Shown here: piece by piece, positions 3,265 through 64,000 of the stretch
Numbering within the stretch: the stretch's first letter is position 1
How the letters are laid out: each line of letters starts with the position of its first letter
NCBI RefSeq assembly: GCF_028356935.1
Contig: NZ_CP102798.1
Coordinates: 992,001-1,056,000, forward strand
From: Lysinibacillus sp. OF-1
GTDB taxonomy: Bacteria; Bacillota; Bacilli; Bacillales_A; Planococcaceae
Direction of reading: 5' to 3'
Length of the DNA: 64,000 bases
The notes under the pieces: model-generated
Told to the model about the DNA's origin: nothing
The model's input: the letters and a program-made list of their open reading frames with translations, nothing else
Databases searched by the model: none
Made by a program: the position numbers and the translations under genes

Positions 3265-3520
3265 AAAGATATGCATACAGGCAGAGACGAAGACAGTATT
3301 TGTTAGGCGTAGTTAAGCGATTTGGGGACAGTGAGAGCCCAAACATGCAACTAACATTGAACATCACTTCTGAGCTAAATAGCTGAAAAAAGTAGGTTAT
3401 TTCGTGATGCACGACGTTAACGTGCTTGAAAGAGGTAGTGCAATATTTTTGTGCTACAAGTAGGGTGGTACCGCGAGTAGAAGCTTCTCGTCCCTTAGTG
3501 GGATTGAGGGCTTTTTTTAT
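3265..3520 (+). promoter_or_regulatory. T-box riboswitch (isoleucine) upstream of ileS
   Basis: The conserved T-box sequence AGGGTGGTACCGCG is at 3462-3475. Its TGGT can pair with the ACCA end of uncharged tRNA-Ile. It is followed by a terminator (about 3486-3518, CTCG-TCCC pairing GGGATTGAG, then a T run). The upstream 3270-3400 segment is the Stem I region; ATC at 3363-3365 in GAACATCAC is my candidate specifier codon, which fits Ile. The 5' boundary is approximate. Uncharged tRNA-Ile is expected to stabilise the antiterminator and allow ileS transcription. Confidence 0.93.
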
Positions 3521-13480: not shown

Positions 13481-13494
13481 TAGTACCTTTTAAT

Positions 13495-13612
13495 GAATTG
13501 TCCAGAGAGGCAAAAAAAGGGAAGTTGTGGACAGGCTGAAGTAGGATGTATGTCTTGCTGTAGTTTGTCACGCCTCCTTATGCCTCGTTGATGACATCAA
13601 CGGGGCTTTTAC
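13495..13612 (+). promoter_or_regulatory. PyrR-dependent attenuator between pyrP and pyrB
   Basis: TTGTCCAGAGAGG at 13498-13510, with AAAGG at 13517-13520, is a second PyrR-binding loop. The terminator GCCTCGTTGATG / CATCAACGGGGC (13582-13606) has a T run. A reading frame opening at 13588 for pyrB lies inside this structure and is not the real start. Confidence 0.9.
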
Positions 13613-13674
13613 TTTATATACAGAGAACGTCATACATAGACGTTCACGATTCACAACCTAATGGAGGTCACATG

Positions 13675-56125: not shown

Positions 56126-56869
56126 CTACCCTTTTCCACGATAACCAAGTTTTGTCGATACACGTTTACCAGTATCAACTAAGCGCTCAATTAATGTATT
56201 AATATGATCTTGAGAGACATTAAAATTCACAAAGCCGATGCTCACTGCACCTATCACTTCACCAAAACCATCTTGTACAGATACCGCAATGGAGGAAGTA
56301 CCAGCAGTTCGTTCTCCATGACTTATTGCATAGCCCTGCTGTCGGATGTTTTGAAGTTGTCCTTCTAATTCAGCAATTTCGTCTTTCGTTATTAGCTGTT
56401 CCAAAATTTCTTTTGACTGAGTGTCAGGCATAGAAGCAAGAATGGCTTTATTGGCTGCGCCAATATGCATAGGTATGCGAATGCCAAGTTGGTCATAAAT
56501 ACGAATCGGATTTGCAGCACTGTCTATTCTTTCTATAATAATTGTATCTAAACCAGCAGGCTTACTTAAATAGACACTTTCTTCAACTTCTCTTGCTAAG
56601 CGTTCTAATTCAGGCCTAATTTTACTAATATAATCCATCGTGTCATATACCTGTAAGCCAAGTTCCATCCATATTGTTCCGAGGCGATAATGCTTAGTCT
56701 GCTCATCCTGTTCAATCATACCTTGTTTAATCATGGCTTTTAAAATTCTATGTAAAGTACTTAGTGGTAAATCGCATTTTGTAGAAAGCTCTGAAATAGA
56801 CAAGCTACGGTCATTTGCTTCAGATGCTAAAACCTTCGCAATCGTCATAGCTCGCTCTAATAATTGCAT
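56126..56869 (-). CDS. IclR-family transcriptional regulator
   Basis: A 247-residue IclR protein. The N-terminal winged helix has LSISELSTKCDLPLSTLHRIL and the C-terminal effector domain (about 80-245) has GAANKAILASMP and GISHGERTAGTSSIAVSV-type signatures. The ATG at 56869 is supported by GAGGTG about 6 bases upstream. It is divergent from the guanidino hydrolase cluster and most likely regulates it. The palindrome GGAAAACGTTTCC in the shared region (57099-57111) could be its operator or a cre. Confidence 0.9.
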   Translation of the reverse strand: MQLLERAMTIAKVLASEANDRSLSISELSTKCDLPLSTLHRILKAMIKQGMIEQDEQTKHYRLGTIWMELGLQVYDTMDYISKIRPELERLAREVEESVYLSKPAGLDTIIIERIDSAANPIRIYDQLGIRIPMHIGAANKAILASMPDTQSKEILEQLITKDEIAELEGQLQNIRQQGYAISHGERTAGTSSIAVSVQDGFGEVIGAVSIGFVNFNVSQDHINTLIERLVDTGKRVSTKLGYRGKG

Positions 56870-57045
56870 TTGCCCCACCTCCCTTCCTCCTATTTTATTT
56901 TTATTCTCCAATTACGTCTAGTTCCAATATTTTCGAGCGAATAGATGTCTATACAAAGATGTGTAAAATGAATCCTCGTACAATTGTTTTTCAATGGATA
57001 AATCAAATTTAGATTAAAGGAAAAATAAAAAGTTTTCTAAATATA

Positions 57046-57074
57046 TTGACAGTATAGCATAAAACGAATATATT
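57046..57074 (+). promoter_or_regulatory. Sigma-A promoter of the guanidino hydrolase cluster
   Basis: TTGACA (57046-57051), a 17-base spacer, and TATATT (57069-57074). The start is expected near 57081, 56 bases before the first gene. Confidence 0.8.
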
Positions 57075-57097
57075 TTTCATATAAACTTTCCTCTTAA

Positions 57098-57111
57098 CGG
57101 AAACGTTTTCC
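57098..57111 (-). promoter_or_regulatory. cre-like CcpA site
   Basis: Read on the minus strand GGAAAACGTTTCCG, 12 of 14 to TGWAARCGYTWNCW. It lies about 17-30 bases downstream of the predicted transcription start, a usual position for CcpA roadblock repression. Confidence 0.6.
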
Positions 57112-57136
57112 ACTACACGGAAAAGGGGTGAAGGGA

Positions 57137-58009
57137 ATGCATTATTGTTCATCAATGTATGCACCTTTGAAACACGTTATAGTAAAACATCCGAAAGATG
57201 CTTTCCGAAGCCAGGCACATCTTAGCGATGAATGGAAAACATTTAACTATTTATCTGAGCCTAACTATGAAGAAGCGCTAAGAGAATATGCTGAATTTAT
57301 TAGGATTCTTGAAAAGTATGTTGATACGATTGATTATTTGCCTGCTAATGATGAAGTAGGGTTAGATTCGCTTTATGCACATGATCCAGTTAAATTCACA
57401 CCAAATGGCGCCATTATACTGAAATCTGGCAAAAAATTGAGACAGCCAGAAGCAGCAGTATATAAGGCCTTTTTACAGGAGAAAGGTATTCCAATCATTG
57501 GGGAACTAACAGGAGAGGCGGTATCAGATGGTGGAGATCTTGTTTGGTTAGATGATCGAACACTCGTTGTAGGTAGAGGTTATCGTACAAATGATGAAGC
57601 TATCCATCAATTAAAGGAAATGACAGCGGATATGGTGGATGAGTTTATTGTTGTGCAGCTACCCCATGACTTAGGTGAAGCTGAGTGTTTACATTTAATG
57701 TCTTTCATAAGTATGGTAGATCGAGATTTAGCTGTTGTACATTCACGTTTAATGCCAGTATTTTTCCGACAACTGCTTATCGAGCGAGGTATCCAATTAA
57801 TAGAAGTACCGAAGGATGAGTATGATGCACTGGGCTGTAATGTCTTGGCGCTTGCACCAAGAGTGTGCGTTATTCCTGAAGGGAACAAAGTAACAAAACA
57901 ACAGCTACTTGATGCTAGTGCAACAGTGTTTGAATATAAAGGTGATGAAATTACTGTTAAAGGAACAGGTGGGCCAACATGCCTAACTTGTCCAGTAGTA
58001 AGAGGATAA
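57137..58009 (+). CDS. Arginine deiminase / amidinotransferase family hydrolase
   Basis: A 290-residue pentein (guanidino-group modifying) enzyme. Expected catalytic features are Asp83 (HDPVKF), His186 in ECLHLMSFISMVD, which is close to the HLDTVFTMVD motif of arginine deiminase, and Cys282 in GTGGPTCLTCP. GGDLVWLDDRTLVVG is the second Asp motif. Its reaction is probably hydrolysis of arginine or a substituted arginine to citrulline; exact substrate is unknown. ATG 57137 is preferred over GTG 57128. It is the first gene of the cluster, 14 bases before the second pentein gene. Confidence 0.85.
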   Translation: MHYCSSMYAPLKHVIVKHPKDAFRSQAHLSDEWKTFNYLSEPNYEEALREYAEFIRILEKYVDTIDYLPANDEVGLDSLYAHDPVKFTPNGAIILKSGKKLRQPEAAVYKAFLQEKGIPIIGELTGEAVSDGGDLVWLDDRTLVVGRGYRTNDEAIHQLKEMTADMVDEFIVVQLPHDLGEAECLHLMSFISMVDRDLAVVHSRLMPVFFRQLLIERGIQLIEVPKDEYDALGCNVLALAPRVCVIPEGNKVTKQQLLDASATVFEYKGDEITVKGTGGPTCLTCPVVRG

Positions 58010-58023
58010 AGGAGACGAAAATT

Positions 58024-58785
58024 ATGTTTAAAAATGTTATTGTTAAAAATCCAGGAAATAGTTTTGTAAACGGTTTAACAACTAGTGATTTAGGTAAACC
58101 CATTTTAGAAAAATTGTTTGAACAGCATGAAAAGTATATAGATGCTTTGAAAAAATGTGGCGTTGAGGTTACACAATTACCAGCAAATGAAGCATTCCCA
58201 GATTCAACATTTGTAGAAGATACGGCAGTATTAACATCTGAATTTGCTATTATCTCAAACCCTGGAGCAGCTGCTCGTAATCGTGAAATCGAAGATATTG
58301 AACCAGCAGTGAAACCATTCTTTGAAAAAATTTACTATATTAAAGGCTCTGGAACGCTTGATGGTGGAGATGTATTACAAGCAGAGAAGAAATTTTACGT
58401 AGGGATCTCAGACCGTACAAATGAAGAAGGCGCACAGCAATTTAAAAAAATTGTTGAGCAAGAAGGCTATGAAGCGACTATTATTCCATTAAAAGAGTTC
58501 TTCCATTTAAAAACAGGGGTTGCCTATGTTGGGGATAATCGTATGGTGGTAGCTGGTGAGTTTGTCGATCACCCTGCATTTGAATCTTATGATAAAATCG
58601 TGATTCCTAAAGAAGATGAATATTCTGCTAACTGTATTCAAGTAAATGATTATATTATTATTCCAGCTGGCTACCCAGAAACAAATCGTAAATTACAAAA
58701 TCTTGGCTATCAAACTATTGAACTTGAGATGTCTGAGTTTAGAAAACACGATGGTGGCTTAAGTTGTTTATCATTACGTTTTTAA
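58024..58785 (+). CDS. Dimethylarginine dimethylaminohydrolase (DDAH)-like
   Basis: A 253-residue pentein close in size to Pseudomonas DDAH (254). Asp60 in FPDSTFVED, GTLDGGDVLQ, His161 in FHLKTGVAYVGDN and Cys248 in HDGGLSCLSLRF form the expected active site. DDAH converts N-omega-methylated arginines to citrulline and methylamines. The start at 58024 is supported by AGGAGA before it; the longer frame from 57979 lies in the upstream gene. A hairpin follows. Confidence 0.88.
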   Translation: MFKNVIVKNPGNSFVNGLTTSDLGKPILEKLFEQHEKYIDALKKCGVEVTQLPANEAFPDSTFVEDTAVLTSEFAIISNPGAAARNREIEDIEPAVKPFFEKIYYIKGSGTLDGGDVLQAEKKFYVGISDRTNEEGAQQFKKIVEQEGYEATIIPLKEFFHLKTGVAYVGDNRMVVAGEFVDHPAFESYDKIVIPKEDEYSANCIQVNDYIIIPAGYPETNRKLQNLGYQTIELEMSEFRKHDGGLSCLSLRF

Positions 58786-58800
58786 GACATGCTAACATTG

Positions 58801-58839
58801 CCCAATCAATTTAAAAGGGAAAATTGATTGGGTACTTTT
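58801..58839 (+). terminator. Weak terminator or processing hairpin after the DDAH gene
   Basis: CCCAATCAATTT / AAATTGATTGGG (58801-58812, 58821-58832) followed by an interrupted T run. Partial termination before the permease is likely. Confidence 0.7.
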
Positions 58840-58846
58840 ATTCTTT

Positions 58847-58861
58847 GATTATCTGAATATT
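58847..58861 (+). promoter_or_regulatory. Weak CodY-like box before the permease
   Basis: GATTATCTGAATATT matches 12 of 15 consensus positions, 25 bases before the permease start. Confidence 0.3.
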
Positions 58862-58886
58862 TACACTATATGGGAAGTAGGGATGG

Positions 58887-60308
58887 ATGTTGAATAAAGG
58901 GGATCAGCTTCACAACAATCAATTAAATCGATCGATGAAAAGCCGTCACTTATTAATGCTTTCACTTGGGGGTGTTATTGGAACGGGCTTATTTTTAAAT
59001 GTTGGCTATACCATTAATCAAGCAGGACCAGGTGGTGCTCTAATTGGTTACTTGTTTGGTGGCCTAATTTTGTTTATGGTCATGAACTGTCTTGGGGAAT
59101 TGGCTGTTTATATGCCAGTTACAGGCTCCTTCCAAACATACGCTACACGTTTCATTAGTCCTTCAGCTGGTTTTTCATTAGGCTGGATGTATTTTGTCGG
59201 GTCTGCCGCCACAGCTGGTGTTGAATTTACAGCTGCTGGGATTTTAATGCAACATTGGTTTCCAACTGTACCAATATGGATTTGGTGTGCTGTGTTTATG
59301 GTTCTTTTATTTGTCTTAAATGCTTTAACAACAAAGGGCTTCGCTGAAGCAGAGTTCTGGTTTGCTAGTATCAAAGTTGTTGCAGTCATAGCATTTATCA
59401 TTATAGGTGGTGCGGCCATTTTCGGATTAATTCCATTAGCAGATCGTCCAACGCCACATCTGACAAATTTAGCACCTACTGGTTTATTCCCAGCAGGTAT
59501 TTCTATTATTTTTGTCACAATGATGAATGTTATTTTCTCTTATCAGGGATCAGAGCTTGTTGGTATTGCAGCAGGTGAAACCGAGAACCCTGAAAAAAAT
59601 ATTCCAAGAGCGATTCGTACTATTCTTTTTAGAATTATAGTCTTTTATATTGCCTCCATTATTGTATTATCGGCGATATTCCCAGCATCAGAGCTTGGTC
59701 TTGTAGAGAGTCCATTTGTAACGTTGATGAATATAGCAGGTGTTCCATATGCAGCTAGTATCATGAATTTTGTTATATTAACGGCTATTTTATCAGTCGG
59801 CAATTCATGTCTGTATGCGTCAACACGTTTATTATTCTCTATGTCACAAGAGGGAATGGCACCTAAGTTATTTGGTCGATTGACTAAAAATAAAGTGCCT
59901 TTAAATGCGCTCATTTTTACAATGGCTTTCTCACTATTATCCTTATTAACAAGTGTAATGGAAGCTGATGCAGTATTTGTGTTACTCATGTCGGTGGCCG
60001 GAATCTCTGTCACAATCTCATGGATGGGGATTTGTGCTTCTCAACTAATGTTCCGCTATCGTTATGTAAAGTCTGGAGGAAATTTGGCTGATTTAAAATT
60101 TAAAACACCTCTATTTCCTTTAATACCTGTATTTTGTATTATCTTTTGTGTATTTATTTTAGTATTTTTAGCGTTTGATCCAACGCAAAGAATCGGTTTA
60201 CTGTACGGGATTGGCTTCTTTATTGCCTGTATGATTTTTTATCAATTGAAATTAAAAAATGCAACAACGACAGATAGTAAAAGTGAAGAGTCACTAGAAA
60301 TTCGTTAA
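58887..60308 (+). CDS. Amino-acid permease (APC/AAT family)
   Basis: A 473-residue permease with about 12 membrane segments. The APC entry motif is LMLSLGGVIGTGLFLN and the family segment is GSAATAGVEFTAAGI. YQGSELVGIAAGETENPEKNIPRAI is the AAT-family hallmark. It resembles the RocE/LysP-type arginine/lysine permeases, suiting a cluster that acts on arginine-type compounds. ATG 58887 or TTG 58890 are possible starts. It is separated from the DDAH gene by a weak terminator. Confidence 0.9.
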   Translation: MLNKGDQLHNNQLNRSMKSRHLLMLSLGGVIGTGLFLNVGYTINQAGPGGALIGYLFGGLILFMVMNCLGELAVYMPVTGSFQTYATRFISPSAGFSLGWMYFVGSAATAGVEFTAAGILMQHWFPTVPIWIWCAVFMVLLFVLNALTTKGFAEAEFWFASIKVVAVIAFIIIGGAAIFGLIPLADRPTPHLTNLAPTGLFPAGISIIFVTMMNVIFSYQGSELVGIAAGETENPEKNIPRAIRTILFRIIVFYIASIIVLSAIFPASELGLVESPFVTLMNIAGVPYAASIMNFVILTAILSVGNSCLYASTRLLFSMSQEGMAPKLFGRLTKNKVPLNALIFTMAFSLLSLLTSVMEADAVFVLLMSVAGISVTISWMGICASQLMFRYRYVKSGGNLADLKFKTPLFPLIPVFCIIFCVFILVFLAFDPTQRIGLLYGIGFFIACMIFYQLKLKNATTTDSKSEESLEIR

Positions 60309-60326
60309 CCAAAAATTTAACGAATT
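60299..60326. repeat. 10-bp inverted repeat between the permease and RocB-like genes
   Basis: AATTCGTTAA (60299-60308) and TTAACGAATT (60317-60326) enclose 8 bases; the left arm includes the permease stop codon. It lacks a T run. Confidence 0.75.
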
Positions 60327-60346
60327 GAGGCTAAAGGAGAGTTTGT

Positions 60347-61951
60347 ATGAATAATTATATGTGGAATACACCTGAAAAACTGCGAGCATTGCTATGTGAA
60401 ATTGTCAGTTGGGAAAGCAGGACATTGACAAAGGGTGAAAATGACTTTGCCTATAAATTAAAAGATAAATTGTTAACGCTTCCATATTTTGAAAAACATC
60501 CAGAGCTTATTGAATTACATGATGCAGGGCTTGGAAGAAATGCTGTTTCGGCATTTTATAAGCACCCAACAGCAACAGAAACAGTGGTGTTAATCAGTCA
60601 CTTCGATACAGTGCATACGGAGGAATATGGAGAACTAGAGCCACTAGCTTTTTATCCAGAGGAATTAACAAAAAAACTGATGGAGTCTAAATACAAAGAA
60701 GATTTACCAGAAGCGGCTAGAATTGATTTGGAGTCAGGTAATTATTTATTTGGTCGTGGCACAATGGATATGAAAATGGGACTTGCTTTACATATGCAGC
60801 TCATTGAAAAGGCAAGCTTTGAACAATGGCCAATTAATTTGATTTTAACTACTGTACCTGATGAGGAAGTAAACTCTGCTGGAATGCGAGCTGCTGTTGT
60901 GGAGCTTGTGAGACTTCGTGAACAACATGGGCTAACCTATAAATTATTTTTAAATAGTGAACCTTCCTTTTCGCAAGGGCCATCTGATACAAATGAATAT
61001 ATCTATTCAGGTACTATAGGGAAAATAATGCCAGCTGCTTTATTTTATGGCAAAGAGACGCATGTTGGCGAACCTTTAAAGGGCATGACCGCTAACTTTA
61101 TTGCTTCTTATATGACACAGTACATGGAGTGGAATCCTCTTTTCCGTGAAACAGATTTGGGAGAAAGTACGCCACTGCCAGTTTCTTTACAATTAAAAGA
61201 TTTAAAAATGGAGTATTCTACACAAACACCATATCGTGCGGCTGCACTGTACAATGTATTTTTATTAAAACGTACAGCTGCAGAAGTAATGGCTATCTTT
61301 GAACAAGTGGCATTACAAGCCATGGCTGCTTGTAATGAGCAATACCAAAAAGTTTGCACCCGAGAAAAAGTACAAGGGGTAGGGAATGTACAGGTTTTGC
61401 GATATGAGGCATTGTTGGAGCATGCTATCCATAAATTGGGTGAGGAGGAAGTGCGAACGATCAAACAGCAAGTTCTTCAGCATCACGCATGGGACGATCG
61501 TGAAAAATCTATACGTATTGTTGATCAGCTCATGATTCGTTGTCAGGAATTAGCACCAGCAACAGTTTTGCTATATGCACCACCTTATTATCCAGCAATT
61601 AATTCATCCAATCATCCACTTGTTATTCAATCGATTGAATTGATGAAGAAAACGGCTCAAACATTTGCTATTGAGGTGGAGCAGATTCATTATTTTAACG
61701 GGATTTGTGATTTAAGTTATGTTAACTACACAGATGATTCAAACGAGTGGTTAGCATTCGAACGTAACACACCTGTATGGGGAGATACGTATAGTATTCC
61801 GTTTAAAGAAATGTCTGCATTACAGGGGCCTGTATTAAATGTCGGTCCCTTTGGCAAAGATGCACACCAAAAAACAGAAAGACTGCATGTGGATAGTGCC
61901 TTTAAAGAAATGCCTGTTATGATCGACAAGCTTATTAAAAGTCTTTTTTAG
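60347..61951 (+). CDS. RocB-like M20-family metallopeptidase
   Basis: A 534-residue M20 protein similar to B. subtilis RocB (arginine/ornithine utilisation, activity unknown). Metal-site motifs: LISHFDTVH, GRGTMDMKMG, TVPDEEVNSAG, and a late HxK-type motif DAHQKTERLHVDS. The size and inserted central part are as in RocB and not as in simple dipeptidases. AAAGGAGA precedes the ATG. It is the last gene of the accessory cluster. Confidence 0.85.
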   Translation: MNNYMWNTPEKLRALLCEIVSWESRTLTKGENDFAYKLKDKLLTLPYFEKHPELIELHDAGLGRNAVSAFYKHPTATETVVLISHFDTVHTEEYGELEPLAFYPEELTKKLMESKYKEDLPEAARIDLESGNYLFGRGTMDMKMGLALHMQLIEKASFEQWPINLILTTVPDEEVNSAGMRAAVVELVRLREQHGLTYKLFLNSEPSFSQGPSDTNEYIYSGTIGKIMPAALFYGKETHVGEPLKGMTANFIASYMTQYMEWNPLFRETDLGESTPLPVSLQLKDLKMEYSTQTPYRAAALYNVFLLKRTAAEVMAIFEQVALQAMAACNEQYQKVCTREKVQGVGNVQVLRYEALLEHAIHKLGEEEVRTIKQQVLQHHAWDDREKSIRIVDQLMIRCQELAPATVLLYAPPYYPAINSSNHPLVIQSIELMKKTAQTFAIEVEQIHYFNGICDLSYVNYTDDSNEWLAFERNTPVWGDTYSIPFKEMSALQGPVLNVGPFGKDAHQKTERLHVDSAFKEMPVMIDKLIKSLF

Positions 61952-61991
61952 TCAAATAAATTTTAAAATATTGAACTGAATATAATATAAA

Positions 61992-62022
61992 CAAAGTTGA
62001 TGCTATAAAAGTATCAACTTTT
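61992..62022 (+). repeat. 31-bp direct repeat, copy 1 (hairpin with T run)
   Basis: CAAAGTTGATGCTATAAAAG followed by TATCAACTTTT. It contains the stem AAAGTTGAT / ATCAACTTT and ends in T residues, so it is probably the terminator of the RocB-like gene. Confidence 0.9.
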
Positions 62023-62084
62023 CATCTTGTTGAAAAAAGGTGATGTCAATAGCAGAAAAAGAACCTTTCGCAAGGCGAGGGGTT

Positions 62085-62427
62085 GATTTCCGTTCCGCCA
62101 GACTCCTTTCCAGGGGGCGTCCGACGAGCCGCTTCACTCACTGCGTTTCGCTCCAGGGTCTCACCTGCTAATTCCCCTAGGAGTGACGCTGGCTCCACTC
62201 CAATCTATACTAGCCGAAGCGATCAAAATAGCTCATTATTTGTATAATTAAAGAAAAGAGGCTCTTCAATGTGGAGAAGTGATGAGTGACAACACCTCTA
62301 CATAAAATGAGTAGTGAACATCTACATTTTATTTGAAAACCTTTGCTAAAAAGAAACATTGGCGTGGAAGGCTACTTGACTCCCTTGGGATAGCGAGACA
62401 GGCAAGCAATAGCCTGTAACGGAAATC
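62085..62427. repeat. GC-rich intergenic repeat element with terminal inverted repeats
   Basis: GATTTCCGTT (62085-62094) and AACGGAAATC (62418-62427) bound an element with internal GC-rich parts (62095-62210) such as CCAGGGGGCGTCCGACGAGC and GCTCCAGGGTCTCACCTGC. It resembles, from memory, non-coding repeats scattered in Lysinibacillus-type genomes. No open reading frame is seen, so it is a MITE-like or REP-like unit at most. Confidence 0.65.
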
Positions 62428-62480
62428 CATTTTCACCTTTCACAAAAATTCTATGGATGGTTTTGTTTTTCAACACTATG

Positions 62481-62511
62481 CAAAGTTGATGCTATAAAAG
62501 TATCAACTTTT
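62481..62511 (+). repeat. 31-bp direct repeat, copy 2 (hairpin with T run)
   Basis: Identical to the copy at 61992-62022 over 31 bases, with an additional T run after it. Confidence 0.9.
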
Positions 62512-62611
62512 TTATTTATCAAAAAAATTTCGACCTACTTGTATTTTTCATTCTTTAGACGATACATATAGAACATTATATAACTGAAAGCGGACAATAG
62601 GAGCGAGTATT

Positions 62612-63817
62612 ATGAAAAATCAAGAAAAAATAGCTTTTTCTATTCGCAAAGAAATGGTTCAGTCGAATTTAAAAGGGATGAGAACAGTTGCTTGGTCACT
62701 TATGTATGTATCGGCTATTATTTCCCTTATTCATTATGGAGAGGTTTTCTTTGTCAAAGCAGAAAGAGCCATGGTCCCCGTCTATATTGCCATTCATATC
62801 GCCATGTTTTATATAGATATAGCCGTATTGTTATTTGTTAGGGAAAAACGAATTCACATTACCTCTGTTAATATACAGAAGTATGAACACCTAGTTGTTA
62901 TTTATATTTACACGATTATGCTATTGATTACGGCAATTTCGGTAATGGATGTTTATTTCTTTCATCATGCAGCATTATATGAGGTGATTTTAATCATTAT
63001 TTGTACGGTATTTGCATTACCTTTACGAAAAATTAGTTGGATTATTTTACTTTCTGCACCAGCAATTATTGCGAGTACATATTTGAGTGTTGGCATGTCC
63101 AGTGAGAATATTAAAGTCATATTACCGATGTCTCTTTTAATTCCGATTGGTATCATAATTCAATATCAGACCTACAAGGTTCGAAAACAAATAACTACAC
63201 AGCATATTTTATTGGATGAAGAAATGATCAAAACGAAACAATTATCAGAGCTGCTAGCTGTTAAAAATAAAGCATTAGCAGAGCAAGCACTAAAAGATCC
63301 TTTAACGAATCTGCCAAATCGACGAGCATTTAATCAGCAATTGACTAAAATAGGACATCAGCTTCATCAACCACAAACATTAACGGTAATGATGATTGAT
63401 ATTGATTATTTTAAAAAGTTTAATGATTACTATGGACATATACAGGGTGACGCGGTCATTGTTAAAGTAGCCTCCTTATTGGCGGAAATTGCAGAGAAGT
63501 ATCAGGCGTTTGTTGCTCGTTGGGGTGGAGAAGAATTTATTATGATTAGTCAGCATACTGAGAAGTTTGCTGAGCCTATATGTGAAGAAATTTTAAAGGA
63601 AGTGCGTGACTTAAAGATTCCACATAGGCAATCAGATATTGTTCAATACGTAACGGTTAGTATTGGAATGTGTCATGCTAACCTGACAATGTATGAGCAT
63701 TTACAAACATGCTGTGATATTGCTGACCAAGCGTTATATTTAGCTAAGCAGAACGGACGAAATAACTATTTTCGTAAAATGGCAATTTTTGACGGAAAGG
63801 AAAATGCGTCTATTTGA
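62612..63817 (+). CDS. Membrane GGDEF diguanylate cyclase
   Basis: A 401-residue protein with about six membrane helices in the first ~190 residues, a short coiled linker, and a C-terminal GGDEF domain. DPLTNLPNRRAF starts at residue 229 and the active-site GGEEF is at 305-309. The aspartates for metal binding (MIDIDYFKKFND) are present, so catalysis is expected (2 GTP to c-di-GMP). The product-inhibition I-site RxxD is not seen; the equivalent positions read KYQA. It is a single gene between the repeat element and asp23. Confidence 0.9.
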   Translation: MKNQEKIAFSIRKEMVQSNLKGMRTVAWSLMYVSAIISLIHYGEVFFVKAERAMVPVYIAIHIAMFYIDIAVLLFVREKRIHITSVNIQKYEHLVVIYIYTIMLLITAISVMDVYFFHHAALYEVILIIICTVFALPLRKISWIILLSAPAIIASTYLSVGMSSENIKVILPMSLLIPIGIIIQYQTYKVRKQITTQHILLDEEMIKTKQLSELLAVKNKALAEQALKDPLTNLPNRRAFNQQLTKIGHQLHQPQTLTVMMIDIDYFKKFNDYYGHIQGDAVIVKVASLLAEIAEKYQAFVARWGGEEFIMISQHTEKFAEPICEEILKEVRDLKIPHRQSDIVQYVTVSIGMCHANLTMYEHLQTCCDIADQALYLAKQNGRNNYFRKMAIFDGKENASI

Positions 63818-63925: not shown

Positions 63926-64000
63926 ATGTCAATTGAATTAAACAATGAATTCGGCCAAATTGATATTTCAACAGATGTACTTGCACAAATTGCTGGTGGT
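63926..64000 (+). CDS. Asp23/Gls24 family protein YloU, 5' part only
   Basis: The first 25 residues, MSIELNNEFGQIDISTDVLA and onward, match the N terminus of B. subtilis YloU (Asp23/Gls24 alkaline-shock-like family). CAAGGAGG precedes the start. The gene runs off the window; in Bacillales it is usually followed by the YloV DAK-like kinase. In B. subtilis it neighbours rpmB, so the 8 kb between is an insertion relative to that order. Confidence 0.85.
   Translation, partial: MSIELNNEFGQIDISTDVLAQIAGG

What the first reader, a model, noticed from the sequence alone, without database searches (positions are those of the whole stretch)
56126..61951. Cluster of two guanidino-group hydrolases, permease and RocB-like enzyme, inserted between rpmB and yloU
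Seen: a divergent IclR regulator, an ADI-like pentein, a DDAH-like pentein, an AAT permease and a RocB-like M20 enzyme in a row. Known: DDAH releases citrulline from methylarginines; B. subtilis RocB is tied to arginine use but has no assigned reaction. No ornithine carbamoyltransferase or carbamate kinase is present, so this is not the energy-yielding arginine deiminase operon. Inference: a scavenging path for methylated or peptide-derived arginine, in which the two penteins have different substrates and the M20 enzyme frees or deacylates the product. In B. subtilis rpmB and yloU are adjacent, so the block is accessory.
Basis: partly seen in the sequence, partly recalled or inferred. Interest (0 to 1): 0.8.

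Follow-up and report, generated by a model that had tools for sequence, protein, structure and literature searches.

The report
Methylarginine-scavenging operon of Lysinibacillus
A conserved set of bacterial genes, apparently switched by one DNA-binding protein, looks built to take up methylated forms of the amino acid arginine and break them down to ornithine, and it includes an enzyme type whose exact substrate is not known.

Summary
The five genes are there, in a Lysinibacillus genome. A divergent IclR regulator faces an operon of pentein 1, DDAH, amino-acid permease and M20 hydrolase; a GGDEF gene also precedes yloU. All five genes stay together in 68 of 80 named loci, in varied order. In 398 Bacilli genomes pentein 1 occurs in 27 and DDAH in 31; all 27 have DDAH. 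Pentein 1 is not an arginine deiminase by signature (HLM, not HxD). A conserved double-palindrome operator, TTCC-N7-GGAA-N5-TTCC-N7-GGAA, follows the operon promoter; it is in 30 of 61 genomes searched. Eleven genomes have one further site, always upstream of a YfcC-type antiporter plus amidohydrolase operon, and that pair lies within the locus in 14 of 80. This predicts a methylarginine-scavenging regulon. Best reading: DDAH makes citrulline from ADMA or monomethylarginine, and the RocB-like M20 enzyme hydrolyses citrulline to ornithine without ATP. Pentein 1 takes a further methylarginine, perhaps SDMA. All substrates are inferred; nothing was assayed. 'Accessory' is wrong at genus level (29 of 31 genomes).

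The parts
56126..56869 (-). IclR-family regulator, divergent from the operon
   Evidence: Pfam HTH_IclR and IclR_C; start set by relatives (MQSIDRAM...) seen; directly divergent from pentein 1 in most of 80 loci
57046..57074 (+). SigA-type promoter TTGACA-17-TATATT
   Evidence: (11 of 12 consensus positions; but the scan as a whole found 19 promoter-like sites against 19.8 in shuffles, so the case rests on conservation): TTGAC-type promoter in 57 of 66 divergent regions, mean 0.12 in shuffles
57088..57122 (.). predicted IclR operator, double palindrome TTCC-N7-GGAA-N5-TTCC-N7-GGAA
   Evidence: binding itself not shown
57137..58009 (+). pentein 1: guanidine-modifying-enzyme fold, separate subfamily, substrate unknown
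   Evidence: Pfam ADI, AlphaFold2 pLDDT 91.4, VIA-align to ADI, DDAH and ArgZ; Asp83, Asp/Glu131, His186, Cys282 kept
58024..58785 (+). dimethylarginine dimethylaminohydrolase (DDAH)
   Evidence: full-length match to P. aeruginosa DDAH, E 7.5e-79; active-site residues invariant in 11 sequences
58799..58834 (+). hairpin between DDAH and permease, perhaps a partial terminator
   Evidence: conservation not tested
58887..60308 (+). amino acid permease (APC superfamily)
   Evidence: Pfam AA_permease E 6e-131; nearest NCBIfam model S-methylmethionine permease, 537.2 bits, below its cut-off of 716
60347..61951 (+). RocB-like M20 metallohydrolase
   Evidence: Pfam Peptidase_M20; DapE/ArgE-type fold; candidate metal ligands H85, D87, D141, E173, E174, E205, H507 (roles recalled) invariant in 30 sequences
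61993..62021 (+). operon terminator hairpin, with a second copy at 62482-62510 on the far side of a dispersed repeat

Best explanation
The block is the core of an IclR-controlled regulon that imports and degrades methylated arginines. The permease imports them. DDAH hydrolyses asymmetric dimethylarginine and monomethylarginine to citrulline plus dimethylamine or methylamine. Pentein 1 hydrolyses a second, related guanidino substrate that matters only where methylarginines are used. The RocB-like M20 enzyme hydrolyses citrulline (and possibly N-methylcitrulline) to ornithine plus carbamate without making ATP. The genome's ornithine aminotransferase can feed ornithine to glutamate. A second operon under the same predicted operator, a YfcC-family antiporter plus an N-acyl-amino-acid amidohydrolase, handles exchange and acylated forms. 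IclR represses from a double palindrome just downstream of the promoter until an inducer arrives. Shown: gene content, co-occurrence, operator and regulon pattern, intact active-site residues. Inferred: every substrate, the M20 reaction, IclR binding and repression.
For: DDAH matches P. aeruginosa DDAH over its whole length, with the catalytic Asp, His and Cys positions invariant in 11 aligned sequences. Among 398 Bacilli genomes pentein 1 is in 27 and DDAH in 31; 27 of 27 pentein-1 genomes have DDAH. Of the 17 pentein-1 genomes outside the window's family I searched 16 for DDAH and M20: 16 of 16 have both, although in 11 of them pentein 1 lies apart from them; the 17th (G314) has both in its cluster. 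Two same-genus genomes without pentein 1 (G010, G022) have no close DDAH and no M20 of this type. All five genes are together in 68 of 80 named loci, in changed orders. The operator motif is in 30 of 61 genomes: all 29 same-genus genomes with pentein 1 plus G035; the reversed-pattern control is in 2 of 61. All 11 second sites lie upstream of yfcC-amidohydrolase, and that pair is within the fetched locus in 14 of 80. Ornithine aminotransferase is present over cut-off.
Against: No assay. Rv2323c of M. tuberculosis, annotated as DDAH, is needed for growth on plain arginine (PMC4569260, passages), so a DDAH label does not prove a methylarginine substrate. The cluster DDAH scores 312.9 bits, below the curated 450 of its best NCBIfam model. 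Four of 31 DDAH genomes lack pentein 1. Two of 80 named loci (L225, L229) show no DDAH within the fetched stretch; their genomes were not searched. G033 has pentein 1 but not the exact operator motif. Homology of the M20 enzyme to B. subtilis RocB itself could not be tested. Co-occurrence counts are not corrected for kinship (8 of 145 genera with pentein 1, 11 of 145 with DDAH).
Confidence: 0.65

Rival explanations
1. Pentein 1 is a plain arginine deiminase and the operon is a non-fermentative arginine path (arginine to citrulline to ornithine) with DDAH as an add-on.
Confidence: 0.18
2. The M20 enzyme is a deacylase or dipeptidase that frees (methyl)arginine from acylated or peptide forms, upstream of the penteins, rather than a citrulline hydrolase.
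For: Its closest solved folds are DapE, LysK, acetylornithine deacetylase and, lower, acetylcitrulline deacetylase; M20 enzymes are mostly deacylases or peptidases (recalled).
Against: The same predicted regulon already holds an N-acyl amidohydrolase (371.2 bits against cut-off 153.75); something must dispose of the citrulline, and no OTC lies in the block.
Confidence: 0.2
3. The substrate is another N-substituted guanidino amino acid from plants or other microbes (for example canavanine- or hydroxyarginine-like), and the operon is for nutrition or detoxification.
For: Penteins vary widely in substrate: the fold matches include the nitroimidazole hydrolase NnhA; pentein 1 has an unassigned pocket.
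Against: Strict company of a recognisable DDAH.
Confidence: 0.12

Closest known systems
Pseudomonas aeruginosa methylarginine catabolism (DDAH regulated by DdaR; Lundgren et al. 2017, reference entry seen)
   Same: DDAH for methylarginines; DDAH of the window aligns over its whole length to the P. aeruginosa enzyme
   Different: Regulator here is IclR-type; a second pentein, an M20 hydrolase and a permease are in the operon (the P. aeruginosa gene neighbourhood was not examined)
Bacillus subtilis Roc arginine pathway (Warneke et al. 2023; reference entry seen, content recalled)
   Same: RocB-like M20 enzyme, amino acid permease, ornithine as hub
   Different: SigA-type promoter with a predicted IclR operator (a SigL-type promoter was not searched for); fed by penteins, not arginase
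M. tuberculosis rocE-rocD-Rv2323c cluster (PMC4569260, passages)
   Same: Permease plus DDAH-annotated pentein in one cluster
   Different: Induced by arginine; no second pentein or M20 hydrolase named in the passages seen
Arginine deiminase operon (arcABC)
   Same: Pentein-fold enzyme, citrulline as likely product
   Different: No OTC in the block; pentein 1 fails ADI signatures

Membership tests
Arginine deiminase (ArcA), pentein 1 | Curated NCBIfam arcA score | tested here: not met
   65.6 bits against 489.1; a fetched deiminase scores 554.7
Arginine deiminase (ArcA), pentein 1 | HxD motif and GGPRCM active-site stretch (defining role recalled) | tested here: not met
   HLMS (invariant in 14 sequences) and GGPTCLT (80 of 80), against HLD and GGPRCM in two deiminases
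Arginine deiminase (ArcA), pentein 1 | Pentein fold with Asp, His, Cys | tested here: met
Arginine deiminase operon | OTC and carbamate kinase beside the deiminase | tested here: inconclusive
   No OTC in the block; the only over-cut-off OTC of the genome is elsewhere. Carbamate kinase was not searched
DDAH | Full-length homology to a characterised DDAH | tested here: met
   P. aeruginosa DDAH, residues 1-253 on 1-254, E 7.5e-79
DDAH | Curated NCBIfam dimethylargininase cut-off | tested here: not met
   312.9 bits against 450, so it is called DDAH on homology and active site, not on the curated cut-off
DDAH | FVED, [DE]GGD, HLK, Cys active-site residues | tested here: met
   invariant positions in 11 sequences; FHLKT in 78 of 78 named DDAH, GGLSCLS in 77 of 78
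DDAH | Citrulline release from ADMA | not testable with these tools
   needs assay
RocB (citrulline hydrolase) | M20 fold with intact metal ligands | tested here: met
   (which residues bind metal is recalled)
RocB (citrulline hydrolase) | Homology to B. subtilis RocB above other M20 enzymes | not tested
   no RocB reference sequence was at hand; the sequence search of the PDB gave one weak M20 match, E 0.075, not RocB
RocB (citrulline hydrolase) | Citrulline to ornithine activity | not testable with these tools
   needs assay
IclR regulator | HTH_IclR plus IclR_C domains | tested here: met

The most novel reading that the evidence does not exclude
Pentein 1 founds a new enzyme family, the first hydrolase for symmetric dimethylarginine, releasing methylamine and N-methylcitrulline, which the M20 enzyme cleaves to ornithine. 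With DDAH, the regulon would then degrade every methylarginine made by protein methylation. Side genes would cover modified forms: the amidohydrolase for N-acetyl forms, and in Cytobacillus depressus, Neobacillus drentensis and G032 an aminotransferase plus a 2-hydroxyacid dehydrogenase for keto- and hydroxy-acid forms.
Probability: 0.2. Interest if true: 0.82.

Novelty: new variant of a known kind. Interest (0 to 1): 0.6.

Why it matters
Methylarginines are released when methylated proteins are broken down, and they act as nitric-oxide-synthase inhibitors or transport competitors in animals (PMC6273216, passages). A bacterial regulon that clears them, with a second pentein of unknown specificity, would give a tractable model for where these compounds go in soil and gut, a possible enzyme for SDMA (not a DDAH-1 substrate, same passages), and a natural sensor (IclR with a defined operator).

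Tried and rejected

Literature: searches for methylarginine operons, Lysinibacillus plus dimethylaminohydrolase, and dimethylaminohydrolase plus IclR showed no paper on such a cluster in Bacillota. Searches found no paper at all; for 14, 72, 75 and 107 I saw only the top 15 of 54, 12 of 13, 12 of 46 and 10 of 8,809. The library is open-licence PMC only. Foldseek of the M20 model in 'pdb' was not run because the machine was busy; the VIA second look was.
Full report
What is there. The block runs from a divergent IclR gene through a four-gene operon: pentein 1, DDAH, an amino acid permease and an M20 hydrolase. A SigA-type promoter lies at 57046-57074 and a terminator hairpin at 61993-62021 (that scan found 19 promoter-like sites against 19.8 in shuffles, so the promoter rests on its conservation, below; terminator-like sites were 11 against 3.8). 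rpmB is upstream and yloU begins at 63926, but a GGDEF gene and a dispersed repeat lie between the operon and yloU. The window lies in a 4.71 Mb single-contig genome. The nearest named relative of pentein 1 is Lysinibacillus fusiformis strain Juneja (100%).

Conservation. Pentein 1 is in 29 of 31 genomes of the genus, own included (E below 1e-160; G010 and G022 lack it). I fetched the locus from the 28 others that have it. In 28 of 28, rpmB, iclR, pentein 1, DDAH and permease are in the window's order. M20 is seen in 27 of 28 and yloU in 25 of 28; the rest are cut by contig ends. The GGDEF gene is the variable item: full length in 13, only pieces matched in 4, not found in 8, cut off in 3. So the five-gene block is core here. 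In most other genera it sits elsewhere, without rpmB or yloU beside it in the fetched stretch.

A scan of one genome per species found 256 relatives of pentein 1; only the best 80 were kept, which favours close kin. All five genes occur within the fetched stretch in 68 of 80; some of the other 12 are cut by contig ends. DDAH is seen in 78 of 80, not in L225 and L229, whose genomes I did not search. The usual order is iclR, pentein 1, DDAH, permease, M20, but pentein 1-M20-DDAH-permease, pentein 1-DDAH-M20-permease, and moved iclR or permease genes also occur. Reshuffled order with kept content is what a functional unit gives.

A less biased sample is 398 Bacilli genomes drawn evenly. Pentein 1 (E at most 1e-30) is in 27, DDAH (E at most 1e-60) in 31; all 27 handles are among the 31, and G032, G235, G218 and G380 have DDAH alone. 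The two calls each drew 398 genomes and appear to be the same draw, but the lists of genomes without a match are cut short. I fetched the neighbourhoods of 21 of the 27 anew: 5 have all five genes in a row, 2 have all five with M20 beyond iclR, 3 have DDAH-pentein 1-permease, and 11 have pentein 1 with only an iclR gene. Even the 11 carry DDAH and M20 elsewhere. A search of 16 of the 17 pentein-1 genomes outside the family found both in 16 of 16; the 17th, G314, has both in its cluster. The two same-genus genomes without pentein 1 had no close DDAH (one weak 25% pentein match in G010) and no M20 match at 1e-10. In one of the 11 (G261, L291), M20, iclR, DDAH and permease form their own cluster.

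The operator. In 66 divergent iclR-pentein 1 gaps from the 80 loci, a TTGAC-type promoter with a TATA-type second hexamer 16 to 18 bases on is found in 57 (shuffle mean 0.12). A strict TTTCC-GGAA-TTCC-GGAAA string is in 39 of 66 (none in 50 shuffles), and all 39 have spacings 7, 5 and 7. Many of the other 27 show the same layout with a weaker half-site. The fixed motif TTCC-N7-GGAA-N5-TTCC-N7-GGAA was searched in 61 whole genomes. It is in 30: the 29 same-genus genomes with pentein 1 and G035. It is absent from G010 and G022. G033 has pentein 1 but not the exact motif. The reversed control pattern hits G034 and G057 only. Each of the 30 has a site before pentein 1, and 11 have one further site. 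I read all 11 (own genome, ten others): 11 of 11 lie upstream, within about 200 bases, of a YfcC-family antiporter gene followed by an N-acyl-amino-acid amidohydrolase gene. In Sporosarcina luteola S00266, several Peribacillus and others the same pair is inside or near the cluster, 14 of 80 loci in seven arrangements. Two independent lines, shared operator and physical linkage, give the same wider set. That IclR binds the site is inferred from position and co-occurrence.

The enzymes. DDAH aligns end to end with P. aeruginosa DDAH, and its active-site positions are invariant in 11 sequences. It does not reach the curated cut-off of the NCBIfam model (312.9 against 450). Pentein 1 is a confident pentein model (pLDDT 91.4) but matches deiminase, NnhA, P. 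aeruginosa DDAH and ArgZ about equally. Its active-site stretches are YAHDP, DGGD (EGGD in some), HLMS and GGPTCLT. Deiminases fetched here have FTRDP, EGGD, HLD and GGPRCM; DDAH has FVED, LDGGD, HLK and GGLSCLS. In established pentein chemistry (recalled) the HxD aspartate grips the unsubstituted guanidine nitrogens in ADI, AgDI, PAD and AGAT, and DDAH lacks it. Its loss in pentein 1 suggests an N-substituted guanidine. The M20 protein keeps the candidate metal-ligand positions (roles recalled) and has a DapE/ArgE-like fold. The assignment of citrulline hydrolysis rests on B. subtilis RocB as recalled; I could not compare with that sequence.

Fate of products. The genome has an ornithine aminotransferase over cut-off, five arginase-family genes, not told apart further, and one over-cut-off OTC with no other arginine gene that I recognised beside it. 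Plain arginine therefore seems to have other routes, which argues against pentein 1 being there for arginine.

Variants that hint at substrate form. In Cytobacillus depressus (L212) and Neobacillus drentensis (L232) the permease is replaced by a Pot-type ABC transporter, with a lactate-dehydrogenase gene and an aminotransferase A gene beside iclR (families scanned for L212 only). In G032 (L061) DDAH is linked to a TRAP transporter, a 2-hydroxyacid dehydrogenase (below the curated cut-offs), iclR and aminotransferase A. An aminotransferase and a 2-hydroxyacid dehydrogenase beside DDAH in two different transporter settings suggest use of keto- or hydroxy-acid forms of methylarginine; in animals an aminotransferase (AGXT2) also acts on methylarginines (PMC6273216, passages). 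This is inference, from 3 loci.

Limits. All functions are predicted. Rv2323c of M. tuberculosis shows that a DDAH-labelled pentein can serve arginine use. Counts are not corrected for kinship. The literature search covers open-licence PMC only, and listings were capped.

Noticed in passing
window 61990-62527: A roughly 490-bp dispersed repeat lies between two copies of the operon terminator. The nearest strain (L168) has one terminator copy and no repeat there, while L. cavernae (L169) has a related copy at the same place; related pieces (79-94%) occur in loci L145, L155, L160 and L248 of the same genome.
   Followed up: partly
window 62612-63817: GGDEF gene at the rpmB-yloU site is the variable gene of the genus: full length in 13, only pieces matched in 4, not found in 8, cut off in 3 of 28 genomes.
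   Followed up: partly
L156 7198-8133 and 8150-9463 (G000:C1:1599198 onward): Third pentein of the genome, with an HLD motif and GGIRCM, beside its own amino-acid permease; well below the arginine deiminase cut-off.
   Followed up: partly
L115-L119: Five Lysinibacillus genomes carry a second M20 copy, 92-95% identical to the window's, beside another iclR gene; in the window's genome a 30% identical M20 lies beside a similar iclR gene (L114).
   Followed up: no
L128, L130, L132: Distant M20 relatives (about 30%) in Lysinibacillus lie in a row with amino-acid-type ABC transporter genes; L131 was fetched too but its neighbours were not read.
   Followed up: no
L196: A record named Arthrobacter beigongshangensis carries the full cluster at Sporosarcina-like identity; contamination or mislabelling is likely.
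   Followed up: no
window 3275-3498 and 13482-13613: T-box leader and PyrR-binding site found by Rfam.
   Followed up: no
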